Of a stretch of 64,000 nucleotides of DNA, positions 10,792 through 61,255 are shown piece after piece. A program made the translations under genes and the position numbers. Under the pieces are notes generated by a model that was not told where the DNA came from, made no database searches, and saw only the letters and a program-made list of their open reading frames with translations. Every line of letters begins with the position of its first letter. Within the stretch, counting starts at the first letter, position 1. The stretch spans positions 2,279,001 through 2,343,000 of the forward strand of contig NZ_CP032152.1 of the NCBI RefSeq assembly GCF_003555505.1, given 5' to 3'. Source of the stretch: Thermosynechococcus sichuanensis E542 (GTDB taxonomy: Bacteria; Cyanobacteriota; Cyanobacteriia; Thermosynechococcales; Thermosynechococcaceae).

Positions 10792-11511
10792 CTAAAAGGG
10801 CAAGATTTCAGGGGTGACACGGTAAAAGTAGGGGTGCAGCCACCACAGCAAAGCGACAAAGATCGCCACTCCCCCATAGGCGGGGCGCAAAAATTCCTGC
10901 CACACCAGTTGTTGCTTGCCCTCCCAAATGGCTTTGAAGGGAATGATGGAGGTGCGAGCCTTCAGGGCAGTAAATGCTTCTCCATGCCGTGCGTACCAGC
11001 GGCGATCGCCATGCCAAACCCCAAAGCAGTGATGGGCAATCAGACCAAGGGAAGTTAGCAGTGTAAAGGACGTGCCCAACCACAGCGTATGCGCTACACA
11101 CCAGATCACCTGTCCCCATAACTGCGGGTGGCGGGTAATGCGAATAATGCCCGTTTCGTAGAGGTGCACTTCTGGCTTTTGCACAGCGGCAATTTCTAGC
11201 AGGTTAAATGTGGCCGGATAAAGAAAGAGAAACGAGATCGCCGATAGCCCCCACACGAGCGCACCCATCCCCGGTGCCCCTTGGAGTTGCCACAGTTGCA
11301 CGCCGTCGTAGCGGTGGGCCAAAAAGTAGAGAATCAAGATTGTCGCTAAGGGCAGACTCACTAGGGCGAAAAAAATGCGATAGAGACGGGCACCCACGCG
11401 CTTTTCTGCCCAAGGACGTAAGCTTGCCAATCCACTGTGGGCGATCGCAAACAAGAGCAATAGCCCCACCATGATCCACTGCGAACTGGTTTGCCAACTG
11501 TGGTGATCCAC
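10792..11511 (-). CDS. NnrU-family membrane protein, probable 15-cis-zeta-carotene isomerase-like
   Basis: A 239-residue membrane protein with about six helices. The core motif IRITRHPQLWGQVIWCVAHTL and the following HHCFGVWHGDRRWYARHGEAF are the NnrU/Z-ISO signature, including histidines that bind haem in plant Z-ISO. Z-ISO isomerises 9,15,9'-tri-cis-zeta-carotene in carotenoid synthesis; bacterial NnrU proteins are linked to nitrite metabolism, but that neighbourhood is absent here. A carotenoid role is inferred from similarity of the motif region to plant Z-ISO. The start is a GTG at 11511. The ClC gene follows after 15 bases on the same strand. Confidence 0.75.
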   Translation of the reverse strand: MDHHSWQTSSQWIMVGLLLLFAIAHSGLASLRPWAEKRVGARLYRIFFALVSLPLATILILYFLAHRYDGVQLWQLQGAPGMGALVWGLSAISFLFLYPATFNLLEIAAVQKPEVHLYETGIIRITRHPQLWGQVIWCVAHTLWLGTSFTLLTSLGLIAHHCFGVWHGDRRWYARHGEAFTALKARTSIIPFKAIWEGKQQLVWQEFLRPAYGGVAIFVALLWWLHPYFYRVTPEILPF

Positions 11512-11649
11512 GTCTATCTACTCCCTACATCCCTACAATGGAAACCCCTTCCCATGATCCCAAAGGACGGTTTGTAAAGCAATGTAACTGAGCCGAAAAA
11601 CGCAGCCTATAGGCTATAGTCAAGGCGTTGAGGGCATCCGAATCAATCT

Positions 11650-17966: not shown

Positions 17967-17986
17967 ATTTTAAGATTTCTTAAAAT
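17967..17986 (+). repeat. A/T-rich inverted repeat upstream of the ABC exporter
   Basis: ATTTTAAG and CTTAAAAT form a perfect 8-base inverted repeat with a four-base loop, 25 bases before the ATG at 18011 and 32 bases after gpmI. It could be a protein-binding site or a weak gpmI terminator. A second weak stem (AGGAACA with TTGTCCT) and GTTTTT follow immediately before the ATG. Confidence 0.4.
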
Positions 17987-18010
17987 AGGAACAGTGCTTG
18001 TCCTGTTTTT

Positions 18011-56384: not shown

Positions 56385-56536
56385 AAAACTTAAAACAATT
56401 ACCAATGAGGGCGCGATCGCCCCAAACGCTCATTCTACAGGGGATTGAGCCACATCTACCTGTGTTAAATCAATGGATATGATAGCCCATATATTATGCA
56501 TTTATACCCCCACAATCATGTCAAGAATTCAAGCAT

Positions 56537-56554
56537 CTTAAATAATGTTAATTA
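56537..56554 (+). promoter_or_regulatory. HLR1-like element (possible RpaB site) of psaA
   Basis: CTTAAATAATGTTAATTA has two GTTACA-like hexamers (four of six matches each) exactly ten bases apart, each followed by two A/T bases, the HLR1 layout. It lies just upstream of where a -35 box for the TATAAT at 56579 would be. In other cyanobacteria RpaB bound here activates photosystem I genes in low light. Sequence match is imperfect. Confidence 0.4.
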
Positions 56555-56578
56555 TCGGCAAAGTCTGTACTGCCCTTC

Positions 56579-56584
56579 TATAAT
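56579..56584 (+). promoter_or_regulatory. Candidate psaA -10 box
   Basis: TATAAT with consensus sequence, 155 bases before the psaA ATG. The expected -35 position carries no good TTGACA match, as in many activator-dependent photosystem promoters. Confidence 0.5.
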
Positions 56585-56634
56585 GCTGAATTGAGCATTC
56601 GCCTCCTGAACGGGCTTTATCGTTCCATTCTGGG

Positions 56635-56674
56635 TCTTTAGATTCACGATTCTTCACAATCATTGATCTAAAGA
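56635..56674 (+). repeat. Inverted repeat in the psaA leader
   Basis: TCTTTAGAT (56635-56643) and ATCTAAAGA (56666-56674) are perfect inverted arms around a 22-base spacer. If transcribed, they would fold into a stem-loop roughly 45-85 bases into the mRNA. Role in stability or regulation is inference. Confidence 0.45.
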
Positions 56675-56738
56675 TCTTTCTATATTGCTGAGGTGAATGC
56701 CCTCGTTCCTTCCTTGCCTAAGAGAGAGGAGAGACTCG

Positions 56739-59006
56739 ATGACCATCAGTCCACCGGAGCGAGAGCCAAAGGTCAGAGTCGTGGTTGACAATGACCCGGT
56801 GCCCACATCGTTTGAAAAATGGGCAAAACCCGGGCATTTTGACCGCACCTTGGCCAGAGGACCCCAAACCACCACATGGATTTGGAACCTCCACGCTCTT
56901 GCCCACGATTTTGATACACACACGAGCGACCTTGAAGATATTTCCCGCAAAATTTTCAGTGCACACTTCGGCCATCTGGCTGTGGTGTTCATCTGGCTGA
57001 GTGGGATGTACTTCCACGGTGCAAAATTCTCAAACTATGAGGCTTGGCTGGCCGATCCCACCGGTATCAAGCCCAGTGCTCAAGTGGTCTGGCCCATTGT
57101 GGGTCAAGGCATTCTCAATGGTGATGTCGGCGGTGGTTTCCACGGCATCCAAATCACCTCGGGGCTATTCCAACTGTGGCGTGCCTCTGGGATCACCAAT
57201 GAGTTCCAGCTTTACTGCACCGCAATCGGTGGCTTGGTCATGGCTGGCTTAATGCTCTTTGCAGGCTGGTTCCACTATCACAAGCGCGCTCCTAAGCTGG
57301 AATGGTTCCAAAACGTGGAATCCATGCTCAACCACCACCTTGCCGGGTTACTTGGCTTAGGGTCTTTGGCTTGGGCAGGTCACCAGATCCACGTGTCCCT
57401 ACCCATCAACAAACTCTTGGATGCAGGGGTCGCTGCCAAGGATATTCCCTTGCCCCACGAGTTTATCCTCAACCCCAGCTTGATGGCCGAGCTGTATCCC
57501 AAAGTGGATTGGGGCTTTTTCAGCGGCGTCATTCCCTTCTTCACCTTTAACTGGGCTGCCTACTCGGATTTCCTGACCTTTAATGGTGGCTTGAATCCCG
57601 TTACAGGTGGCCTGTGGCTGTCGGATACCGCCCACCATCACGTGGCGATCGCTGTCCTCTTTATCATTGCCGGTCACATGTACCGCACCAACTGGGGGAT
57701 CGGCCACAGCCTTAAAGAGATTCTTGAAGCCCACAAAGGTCCCTTCACCGGCGCTGGCCATAAAGGTCTCTACGAAGTGCTGACCACCTCTTGGCATGCC
57801 CAACTGGCCATCAACCTAGCCATGATGGGTTCGCTGAGCATTATTGTGGCGCAGCACATGTATGCAATGCCCCCCTATCCTTACTTGGCCACCGACTATC
57901 CTACCCAACTGTCGCTGTTTACCCACCACATGTGGATTGGCGGCTTCCTGATTGTTGGTGGTGCGGCCCACGGTGCCATCTTCATGGTGCGTGACTATGA
58001 TCCAGCAGTGAACCAAAACAACGTTCTGGATCGGGTACTGCGCCATCGCGATGCCATCATTTCTCACCTCAACTGGGTGTGCATCTTCTTGGGCTTCCAC
58101 AGCTTCGGCCTGTACGTCCACAACGACACGATGCGCGCCTTTGGTCGTCCCCAAGATATGTTCTCGGATACGGGGATTCAGCTTCAGCCCGTGTTTGCCC
58201 AATGGGTACAACACCTGCACACCCTAGCCCCCGGTGGCACTGCTCCCAATGCAGCAGCGACCGCTAGTGTTGCCTTTGGTGGTGATGTGGTTGCTGTCGG
58301 TGGCAAAGTCGCCATGATGCCCATTGTTCTGGGAACTGCCGACTTCATGGTGCACCATATTCACGCTTTCACGATCCACGTGACAGTGCTGATTCTGCTG
58401 AAGGGCGTACTCTTTGCCCGCAGCTCTCGCCTCATTCCCGATAAAGCCAACTTGGGCTTCCGCTTCCCCTGCGATGGTCCCGGTCGTGGCGGTACCTGCC
58501 AAGTCTCCGGTTGGGATCACGTCTTCTTGGGTCTGTTCTGGATGTACAACTGCATCTCTGTTGTGATTTTCCACTTCAGTTGGAAGATGCAGTCGGATGT
58601 CTGGGGTACTGTTGCTCCCGATGGCACGGTATCTCACATCACGGGCGGTAACTTTGCCCAGAGTGCCATCACCATCAATGGCTGGCTACGGGACTTCCTG
58701 TGGGCACAAGCTTCTCAGGTGATTGGCTCCTATGGTTCAGCCCTATCCGCCTATGGTTTGTTGTTCTTGGGTGCTCACTTCATTTGGGCCTTCAGCCTCA
58801 TGTTCCTCTTCAGTGGTCGTGGCTACTGGCAAGAGCTGATTGAGTCCATTGTTTGGGCCCACAACAAGCTGAAAGTTGCACCGGCCATTCAACCCCGTGC
58901 CCTGAGCATTATTCAAGGCCGTGCTGTCGGTGTAGCCCATTACCTCCTAGGGGGGATTGCCACTACTTGGGCATTCTTCCTAGCTCGGATTATTTCTGTA
59001 GGATAG
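56739..59006 (+). CDS. psaA: Photosystem I P700 chlorophyll a apoprotein A1
   Basis: A 755-residue core subunit with 11 membrane helices that, with PsaB, binds P700, the antenna chlorophylls, phylloquinones and the FX cluster. The start [16 protein letters not shown] matches Thermosynechococcus PsaA; an in-frame start at 56697 adds 14 unrelated residues. The FX-binding loop [20 protein letters not shown] contributes two of the four FX cysteines, and the P700 axial histidine lies in the C-terminal helices. AGAGGAG precedes the ATG. psaB starts 24 bases after the stop, forming the conserved psaAB operon. Confidence 0.99.
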
Positions 59007-59029: not shown

Positions 59030-61255
59030 ATGGCAACTAAATTTCCGAAGTTTAGCCAAGACCTCGCACAGGATCCGACCACACGCCGGATTTGGTACGC
59101 CATCGCCATGGCTCACGACTTTGAAAGCCACGATGGCATGACCGAGGAAAATCTTTACCAGAAGATTTTTGCCTCCCACTTTGGGCATCTGGCCATCATC
59201 TTCCTGTGGGTGTCTGGTAGCCTATTCCACGTTGCGTGGCAGGGGAACTTTGAGCAATGGATTCAAGACCCTGTCAACACCCGTCCCATCGCCCATGCGA
59301 TCTGGGATCCTCAATTTGGCAAAGCCGCAGTGGATGCCTTCACCCAAGCGGGGGCGTCTAACCCTGTGGATATTGCTTACTCCGGTGTCTATCACTGGTG
59401 GTACACCATCGGTATGCGCACCAATGGTGACCTTTACCAAGGTGCCATCTTCCTGCTGATTCTGGCTTCGCTGGCTCTCTTTGCCGGCTGGCTGCACCTA
59501 CAACCCAAATTCCGTCCGAGCCTTTCTTGGTTCAAAAATGCCGAATCGCGGTTGAACCACCACTTGGCGGGGCTATTTGGGGTTAGCTCCTTGGCCTGGG
59601 CGGGTCACTTGATTCACGTGGCCATTCCAGAGTCCCGTGGTCAGCACGTGGGCTGGGATAACTTCCTGAGCACCATGCCTCACCCCGCTGGTCTGGCGCC
59701 CTTCTTTACGGGCAACTGGGGTGTCTATGCCCAAAATCCTGATACGGCTAGCCACGTCTTTGGCACAGCAGAGGGTGCTGGAACCGCGATTCTCACCTTC
59801 TTGGGTGGGTTCCATCCCCAAACGGAGTCCCTGTGGCTCACGGATATGGCGCACCACCACCTTGCGATCGCTGTTCTCTTTATTGTGGCGGGTCACATGT
59901 ACCGCACCCAATTTGGAATTGGCCACAGCATTAAAGAGATGATGGATGCCAAGGACTTCTTTGGCACGAAGGTGGAAGGTCCTTTCAATATGCCTCACCA
60001 AGGCATCTATGAAACCTACAACAACTCGCTGCACTTCCAGTTGGGTTGGCACTTGGCCTGCTTGGGCGTGATCACTTCCTTGGTGGCACAGCACATGTAC
60101 TCGCTGCCGCCCTATGCCTTCATTGCCCAAGACCACACCACGATGGCTGCCCTCTATACCCATCACCAGTACATTGCTGGCTTCTTGATGGTGGGTGCCT
60201 TTGCCCATGGTGCGATCTTCTTGGTGCGCGACTATGATCCAGCGCAAAACAAAGGCAACGTGTTGGATCGGGTGCTGCAACACAAAGAGGCGATTATTTC
60301 CCACCTGAGCTGGGTGTCCCTCTTCTTGGGCTTCCACACGTTGGGTCTCTATGTCCACAACGATGTCGTGGTGGCCTTTGGCACTCCTGAAAAACAAATT
60401 CTCATTGAGCCAGTGTTTGCTCAGTTCATTCAAGCGGCTCATGGCAAACTGCTCTATGGCTTTGATACGCTGCTGTCGAATCCCGATAGCATTGCTAGTA
60501 CCGCTTGGCCAAACTACGGCAATGTCTGGCTACCCGGCTGGCTCGATGCCATCAACAGTGGCACCAACTCTCTCTTCTTGACGATTGGCCCCGGTGACTT
60601 CTTGGTGCACCACGCCATTGCCTTGGGTCTGCACACCACCACCTTGATTTTGGTCAAAGGTGCGTTGGATGCCCGTGGCTCCAAACTGATGCCAGATAAG
60701 AAAGACTTTGGCTATGCCTTCCCCTGCGATGGTCCTGGCCGTGGCGGTACCTGCGATATTTCTGCATGGGATGCCTTCTATCTGGCCATGTTCTGGATGC
60801 TGAACACCATTGGCTGGGTCACCTTCTACTGGCACTGGAAACACCTTGGTGTCTGGGAAGGCAATGTGGCTCAGTTCAACGAAAACTCCACCTACCTCAT
60901 GGGTTGGCTGCGGGATTACCTCTGGTTGAACTCCTCCCAGCTCATCAATGGCTACAACCCCTTCGGCACCAATAACCTGTCGGTGTGGGCATGGATGTTC
61001 CTGTTTGGTCACCTTGTGTGGGCAACGGGCTTCATGTTCCTGATTAGCTGGCGTGGTTACTGGCAAGAGCTGATTGAAACCTTGGTCTGGGCCCATGAGC
61101 GCACTCCCTTGGCCAACTTGGTACGTTGGAAAGACAAGCCCGTGGCGCTGTCGATTGTTCAGGCTCGTTTGGTGGGTCTGGCACACTTCAGCGTTGGTTA
61201 TGTCTTGACCTATGCGGCCTTTCTGATTGCCTCAACCGCAGCCAAGTTCGGTTGA
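59030..61255 (+). CDS. psaB: Photosystem I P700 chlorophyll a apoprotein A2
   Basis: A 741-residue partner of PsaA with the matching 11-helix layout. The N-terminus [24 protein letters not shown] is characteristic. The FX loop [23 protein letters not shown] supplies the other two cysteines. The C-terminus ends [30 protein letters not shown] precedes the ATG. A strong terminator follows 33 bases after the stop. Complete and intact. Confidence 0.99.

What the first reader, a model, noticed from the sequence alone, without database searches (positions are those of the whole stretch)
56537..56674. psaA leader with HLR1-like site, distant TATAAT and an inverted repeat
Seen: two imperfect GTTACA-type hexamers ten bases apart (56537-56554) directly upstream of the -35 place of TATAAT (56579-56584), and nine-base arms TCTTTAGAT/ATCTAAAGA (56635-56674) in the inferred mRNA leader. 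Established: RpaB binds HLR1 and controls photosystem I genes in other cyanobacteria. Inference: light control at the promoter plus a leader stem-loop.
Basis: partly seen in the sequence, partly recalled or inferred. Interest (0 to 1): 0.5.

Follow-up and report, generated by a model that had tools for sequence, protein, structure and literature searches.

The report
Conserved psaA promoter and folded leader
In front of a photosystem I core gene of this cyanobacterium lies a promoter box shared by most cyanobacteria sampled, and the start of the messenger RNA appears to pair with a stretch just before the gene begins, a folded design until now catalogued in only one other group of cyanobacteria.

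Summary
The HLR1 label is weak: 56537-56554 has 4 mismatches in 16 to KTTACAWW-N2-KTTACAWW; 67 places in the window are as good or better. But the site is real: it is this genus's form of a box (about TTKAATTATTGTTAA, 25-29 nt before TATAAT) found in 166 of 181 distinct psaA loci sampled (exact dinucleotide shuffles: 13 of 181; at a stricter score 159 against 0.2). So the TATAAT is very probably the psaA -10, giving a leader of about 148 nt. The inverted repeat folds but is one arm, intact in 8 of 11 aligned leaders. Across 74 non-redundant leaders the mRNA 5' end pairs with the segment about 66-34 nt before the start codon far better in its own species than when swapped (0 of 5000); control segments show nothing. 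Rfam's psaA RNA (RF01752), which does not match here, has the same outer helix. Best reading: an OmpR-type (probably RpaB) low-light promoter plus a divergent psaA-RNA-type leader affecting mRNA stability or translation. Architecture shown by comparison; function inferred.

The parts
   Evidence: matrix score 22.9, next in window 9.7; related box plus TATAAT in 166 of 181 loci; identical in 9 other same-genus genomes and in G012
56579..56584 (+). TATAAT, -10 element; start site inferred near 56591
   Evidence: box-to-TATAAT spacing 25 here, 25-29 in 165 of 166 loci; start site not measured
56595..56605 (+). 5' arm of the leader-closing helix (GCATTCGCCTC)
   Evidence: fold; in 11 aligned leaders 109 of 110 cells of the 10 consensus pairs are standard, the window's 11th pair is outside the consensus; cross-species swap tests
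56690..56700 (+). 3' arm of the leader-closing helix (GAGGTGAATGC)
   Evidence: as for the 5' arm
56608..56625 (+). inner hairpin A
   Evidence: fold; of 11 leaders 2 break one pair and 1 breaks another
   Evidence: fold; arms intact in 8 of 11 leaders, reshaped or lost in 3
56702..56715 (+). pyrimidine element CTCGTTCC plus TTCCTT (can pair with codons 6-9 and with the SD)
   Evidence: widely conserved but changed to CTCATTCC in Nostocales-type and absent in Trichodesmium/Okeania-type leaders such as L049, L076, L109; P1 swap test z -2.6, 12 of 3000; local fold no better than shuffles, z -0.3
56726..56731 (+). Shine-Dalgarno GAGGAG, predicted mostly paired from 25 to 65 C
   Evidence: a hairpin around the SD is supported by swap tests in relatives, in this genus that hairpin is only 3 pairs (L001 row)
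56756..56763 (+). GGAGCGAG in psaA codons 6-9, synonymously constrained
   Evidence: codon 7 GAG in 152 of 155, codon 8 CGA in 94 of 155, against 329 of 768 other Glu and 42 of 718 other Arg codons; ranks 12 and 2 of 305 codon columns
56739..59006 (+). psaA (psaB follows at 59030)
   Evidence: TIGR01335 and TIGR01336

Best explanation
This is the psaAB control region in two layers. (1) An old, widely shared promoter: an AT-rich direct-repeat box at about -56 to -36, no clear -35 hexamer, and TATAAT. Most likely an OmpR-type regulator, RpaB first, binds the box and raises psaA transcription in low light (inferred). (2) A leader of about 148 nt whose first bases pair with a segment ending about 39 nt before the start codon, closing the 5' leader into one folded domain that holds two hairpins here. 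Just after it come a pyrimidine element, the SD and the first codons, which can pair among themselves. The closing helix is supported by comparison across cyanobacteria and has the same place as the outer helix of the psaA RNA motif RF01752. Its job is inferred: protecting the mRNA 5' end from decay and throttling or presenting the translation start of a very abundant protein.
For: Box plus TATAAT in 166 of 181 distinct psaA loci against 13.3 of 181 in exact shuffles; at score 18 or more 159 against 0.2. Closing helix: native -15.5 against swapped -11.8 kcal/mol (sd 0.36), 0 of 5000 permutations, in 74 leaders with at most 60% identity; controls null (5' with leader middle 3978 of 5000, 5' with coding 2548, upstream stretch with 3' segment 2162, upstream with middle 540). 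Sliding windows give z about -10 only at -62..-38 and -54..-30. It holds outside the window's clade and Nostocales-type leaders (0 of 5000, 91 leaders, looser redundancy filter). Window leader z -5.2, three relatives -3.7, -5.6, -2.5. RF01752 consensus has its outer helix in the same place. Codons 7-8 constrained. RpaB and psaA in other species: passages. Increased ribosome footprints in psaA/psaB 5' UTRs and lower translation efficiency in the cold in PCC 6803 (PMC8651088 passages).
Against: No measured start site, binding or expression here. The site is a poor HLR1 (4 of 16 mismatches) and its full form is unique to psaA in this genome. In 23 of 74 leaders the native pairing is not better than both partner means, and 27 of 74 pass z < -1.65 against shuffles; in a wider set of 127, the native partner is in the top tenth in 45. 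Nostocales-type leaders alone are weaker (50 of 5000, 25 leaders) and so is the window's own clade (145 of 5000, 5 leaders). RNAalifold's covariation term in the 11 close leaders is small (-0.28). The translation-start fold is not more stable than shuffles in the window or two relatives (z -0.3 to -0.8); UUGUC-GACAA pairing (P2) is not supported (z +2.3). Some psaA codons far from the start are as constrained as codons 7-8.
Confidence: 0.6

Rival explanations
1. The box is bound not by RpaB but by another factor, or is an AT-rich upstream element contacted directly by RNA polymerase; psaA is then a special strong promoter rather than an HLR1 gene.
For: Matrix differs from HLR1: GTTAA in place of GTTACA. 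Full form once in this genome; 23 matches at 3 or fewer mismatches against 16 for the reversed control. psaD and psaL lack it, psaF has a weak form at 8.2 bits.
Against: A 10-base direct repeat next to the -35 place fits OmpR-type regulators (recalled), and RpaB acts on psaAB through sites upstream of the core promoter in PCC 6803 (passages).
Confidence: 0.3
2. RNA thermometer: the leader hides the SD at low temperature and melts with warming, as in the Chlamydomonas chloroplast psaA leader.
For: SD paired with UUCCUU in the fold. Chlamydomonas psaA thermometer, and that paper's Discussion reports a similar structure predicted for Synechococcus PCC 7002 (PMC10639063 passages). Lower psaA translation efficiency in the cold in PCC 6803 (passages).
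Against: Modelled SD opening is only 0.08 at 25 C, 0.09 at 37, 0.14 at 55 and 0.19 at 65, no melting step; of 8 leaders modelled locally, two hold the SD open at every temperature (L016, L030).
Confidence: 0.12
3. The inverted repeat and the leader fold are only composition; conservation is at DNA level for transcription.
For: Inverted arms of this size are no rarer in shuffled windows (7 against mean 11.5), and hairpin B decays in G003, G010 and G012.
Against: Leader z -5.2 with 0 of 200 shuffles as stable; the swap test with its null controls is hard to get from composition.
Confidence: 0.08

Closest known systems
psaA RNA motif, Rfam RF01752 (Weinberg 2010, PMC2864571; passages read)
   Same: Upstream of psaA, starts at a -10-like TATGCT, outermost helix from about the transcript start to about 40 nt before the start codon, several hairpins inside.
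   Different: No model match here. In 116 genomes the model hits 3 (2 over its cut-off), all in one family, f2; that these are marine picocyanobacteria is recalled. Inner hairpins differ; no UNCG loops here.
HLR1 sites of psaAB in Synechocystis PCC 6803, bound by RpaB (passages; Takahashi 2010 seen only as a title in a reference list)
   Same: AT-rich 10-base direct repeat just upstream of the core promoter of psaA.
   Different: 4 of 16 mismatches to the consensus; sequence fits its own psaA matrix instead; binding untested.
Chlamydomonas chloroplast psaA RNA thermometer (PMC10639063; abstract and passages)
   Same: psaA leader structure that hides the SD.
   Different: Minimal single hairpin at the SD; here the SD pairing is modelled as stable to 65 C and the helix with the strongest comparative support is elsewhere in the leader.
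5'-terminal stem stabilisers such as the E. coli ompA leader (recalled, no call)
   Same: Helix within a few bases of the mRNA 5' end.
   Different: Long-range closing helix that encloses the leader rather than a local hairpin; stability effect untested.

Membership tests
HLR1 (RpaB site) | KTTACAWW-N2-KTTACAWW consensus | tested here: not met
   4 of 16 mismatches; 67 places in the window as good or better; consensus
HLR1 (RpaB site) | position about -66 to -45 for activation | tested here: inconclusive
   about -54 to -37 from an inferred start site
HLR1 (RpaB site) | binding by RpaB | not testable with these tools
   needs EMSA or ChIP
psaA RNA motif RF01752 | match to the Rfam covariance model | tested here: not met
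   no match at gathering in the window or at E up to 10 in 56400-56800; own genome 0 matches
psaA RNA motif RF01752 | outer helix joining the transcript start to just before the translation start | tested here: met
   predicted fold; swap tests; consensus structure
psaA RNA motif RF01752 | three hairpins, often with UNCG loops | tested here: not met
   two inner hairpins predicted, loops not UNCG; description
RNA thermometer | SD hidden when cool, opened by warming | tested here: not met
   in the energy model only; SD unpaired 0.09 at 37 C, 0.14 at 55 C

The most novel reading that the evidence does not exclude
Most cyanobacteria carry one ancestral psaA riboregulator: a leader whose 5' end is tied to the edge of the translation start, with a conserved pyrimidine element and pairing into codons 6-9. 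RF01752 would be one branch of it. It may adjust PsaA synthesis to light, temperature or photosystem I assembly.
Probability: 0.3. Interest if true: 0.72.

Novelty: new variant of a known kind. Interest (0 to 1): 0.5.

Why it matters
psaA encodes one of the most abundant proteins in phototrophs, and the papers I saw treat its light control mainly at the promoter in two strains. A promoter box and an mRNA-closing helix kept across the class would turn a motif catalogued in one group into a general feature of photosystem I synthesis, with two exact arms to mutate and a clear prediction (compensating changes restore function).

Tried and rejected
Rfam search of the whole window and a permissive search of 56400-56800 found no known RNA above threshold; 20 of the relatives' loci at gathering score gave only a 5_ureB_sRNA and a tRNA match. 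RF01752 was looked for in 116 genomes, 3 hits. UUGUC-GACAA pairing across the start codon looked attractive by eye but failed the swap test. RNAalifold on 88 representatives of the start region gave a weak consensus (-8.7 kcal/mol). The thermometer idea was modelled and not supported for this leader. HLR1 at psaD, psaL, psaF: none with 2 or fewer mismatches nearby; best within 400 nt upstream 3, 6 and 4 mismatches. Reading the 3' leader block as an N-terminal PsaA extension (in-frame ATG at 56697) was rejected because the distance from CTCGTTCC to the start codon varies between genomes by steps that are not multiples of three. Paper searches on psaA leaders or promoters in cyanobacteria (in one search only 15 of 82 papers were listed) turned up the 2010 motif paper, the Chlamydomonas paper and the PCC 6803 footprint paper; most subscription journals are not held, so absence there proves little. 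Whether other photosynthesis genes have a closing helix was not tested.

Full report
Identity and setting. The window lies in a 2.65-Mb single-contig genome (G000) whose psaA and psaB are at 56739 and 59030 on + (TIGR01335, TIGR01336). Divergent from psaA lies a Rid-family gene on - (from 56387 or 56405 down to 55986). Two genomes that it places in the same family, G013 and G020, have contigs of the same length and range as records titled Thermosynechococcaceae cyanobacterium MS004 and Thermosynechococcus sp. WC_1.

The observation. The site as HLR1 has 4 of 16 mismatches, and 67 places in the window are as good or better. One better HLR1-like stretch (3 mismatches) lies in the loop of the inverted repeat, 56643-56660; its first half is not kept in G003 or G010 and I regard it as chance.

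The promoter. After placement 181 distinct psaA start regions remained. A box with at least 11 of 16 matches to TTAATTATTGTTAATT, followed at 20-31 nt by a -10 with at least 5 of 6 matches, is found in 166 of 181, with spacing 25-29 in 165. In ten exact dinucleotide shuffles of the same upstream regions 13.3 of 181 pass on average; at score 18 or more it is 159 against 0.2. The seed was chosen after seeing some of these sequences; the shuffles use the same seed. Of the 15 misses, 8 (L050, L167, L173, L174, L182, L187, L189, L221) are from genomes with two or more psaA matches and have a different leader; L053 resembles L050. That these are far-red-light paralogues is recalled, not tested. The other misses are L041, L098, L112, L124, L179 and L207. 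In the window the box scores 22.9 bits against 9.7 for the next place. In the own genome its full form occurs once.

RpaB. Published work read in passages says that RpaB binds HLR1, activates from about -66 to -45 and has psaA among its targets in PCC 7942/6803, and that psaAB of PCC 6803 has three HLR1 motifs and two promoters. The 7942 ChIP paper itself does not mention psaA in its main text (term search). In S. elongatus UTEX 2973 psaA has a mapped start site and falls in high light (log2 -2.23; table passage). This makes light control at this promoter likely. The sequence itself does not prove RpaB: the conserved psaA box is not the HLR1 consensus, and psaD and psaL here have neither the box nor an HLR1 with 2 or fewer mismatches.

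The leader. Leader 56591-56703 folds at -38.5 kcal/mol, z -5.2; the same region of G003, G010 and G012 gives z -3.7, -5.6 and -2.5. In 11 aligned leaders (own included) 109 of 110 cells of the closing helix's 10 consensus pairs are standard, one pair changing from G-U to G-C and to U-A; hairpin B loses pairs in G003, G010 and G012. RNAalifold's covariation term on these close relatives is small (-0.28).

Closing helix across cyanobacteria. I took the first 30 nt after the inferred start and the segment -66 to -34 from the start codon in 74 leaders (of 147 at least 110 nt long) with at most 60% identity to each other. Native pairs average -15.5 kcal/mol; swapped between species -11.8 (sd 0.36), never as low in 5000 permutations. 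The same test with the leader middle, with the coding region, or with a stretch upstream of the start site gives nothing significant (3978, 2548, 2162 and 540 of 5000). Sliding the second segment shows the signal at about -70 to -22, with z near -10 at -62..-38 and -54..-30. It holds without the window's clade and Nostocales-type leaders (0 of 5000 in 91, with a looser redundancy filter), is weaker in Nostocales-type leaders (50 of 5000 in 25) and in the window's own clade (145 of 5000 in 5). By locus, 51 of 74 are better than both partner means and 34 are in the top tenth one way or the other; 23 show no advantage. RF01752, the Rfam psaA RNA, has its outermost helix in the same place, although it does not match this leader. 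So the window's leader looks like a relative in design, not a member by the Rfam model.

The translation start. CTCGTTCCTT..., AGAGAGGAG and the first codons are widely conserved, with exceptions (CTCATTCC in Nostocales-type, lost in Trichodesmium/Okeania-type leaders). Codon 7 is GAG in 152 of 155 and codon 8 CGA in 94 of 155, against 329 of 768 and 42 of 718 elsewhere; they rank 12th and 2nd of 305 columns in 98 genes, although columns far from the start also rank high. Pairing of the leader element with codons 6-9 has modest swap support (12 of 3000; its control 581 of 3000), a hairpin around the SD has more (1 of 3000; 94 flank combinations gave native -1.94 against -1.64, sd 0.09, the best of 200 permutations being as low), and pairing across the start codon has none. 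In the window the predicted structure pairs the SD with UUCCUU and stays closed to 65 C in the model, so I do not support a thermometer here, though cold-reduced psaA translation efficiency in PCC 6803 and the Chlamydomonas thermometer keep translational control in play.

Verdict. Supported by comparison: a conserved psaA promoter box and a conserved leader-closing helix. Inferred: the start site, RpaB as binder, and the leader's function in stability or translation. Known kind, new and wider variant.

Noticed in passing
window 11571-11588 (-): A perfect HLR1 match (0 mismatches) between an NnrU-family membrane protein gene (10792-11511, -) and an AI-2E-type transporter gene (11650, +); NnrU-like proteins in cyanobacteria include zeta-carotene isomerase (recalled)..
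   Followed up: partly
   Followed up: yes
L050, L167, L173, L174, L182, L187, L189, L221 (and L053, similar): psaA-like genes, 8 of them from genomes with two or more psaA matches, that lack the conserved box and the CTCGTTCCTTG leader element; possibly far-red-light paralogues (recalled) with other control.
   Followed up: no
L277 (psaF, own genome), about 130 nt upstream of the start: A weak form of the psaA box (8.2 bits, CTCGTAAAAATTATTAACCTT) with TAAAAT further downstream.
   Followed up: no
window 56697: An in-frame ATG 14 codons upstream of the psaA start that would extend PsaA; judged non-coding because the spacing is not kept in frame among relatives.
   Followed up: partly
L030 2339-2638 (-): Strong match (110 bits) to the Rfam family 5_ureB_sRNA in a cyanobacterial locus beside psaA, perhaps reflecting a urease gene rather than an sRNA (not checked).
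   Followed up: no
window 17967-17987: An AT-rich palindromic stretch that scores second on both strands with the psaA box matrix (9.5 and 9.7 bits).
   Followed up: no
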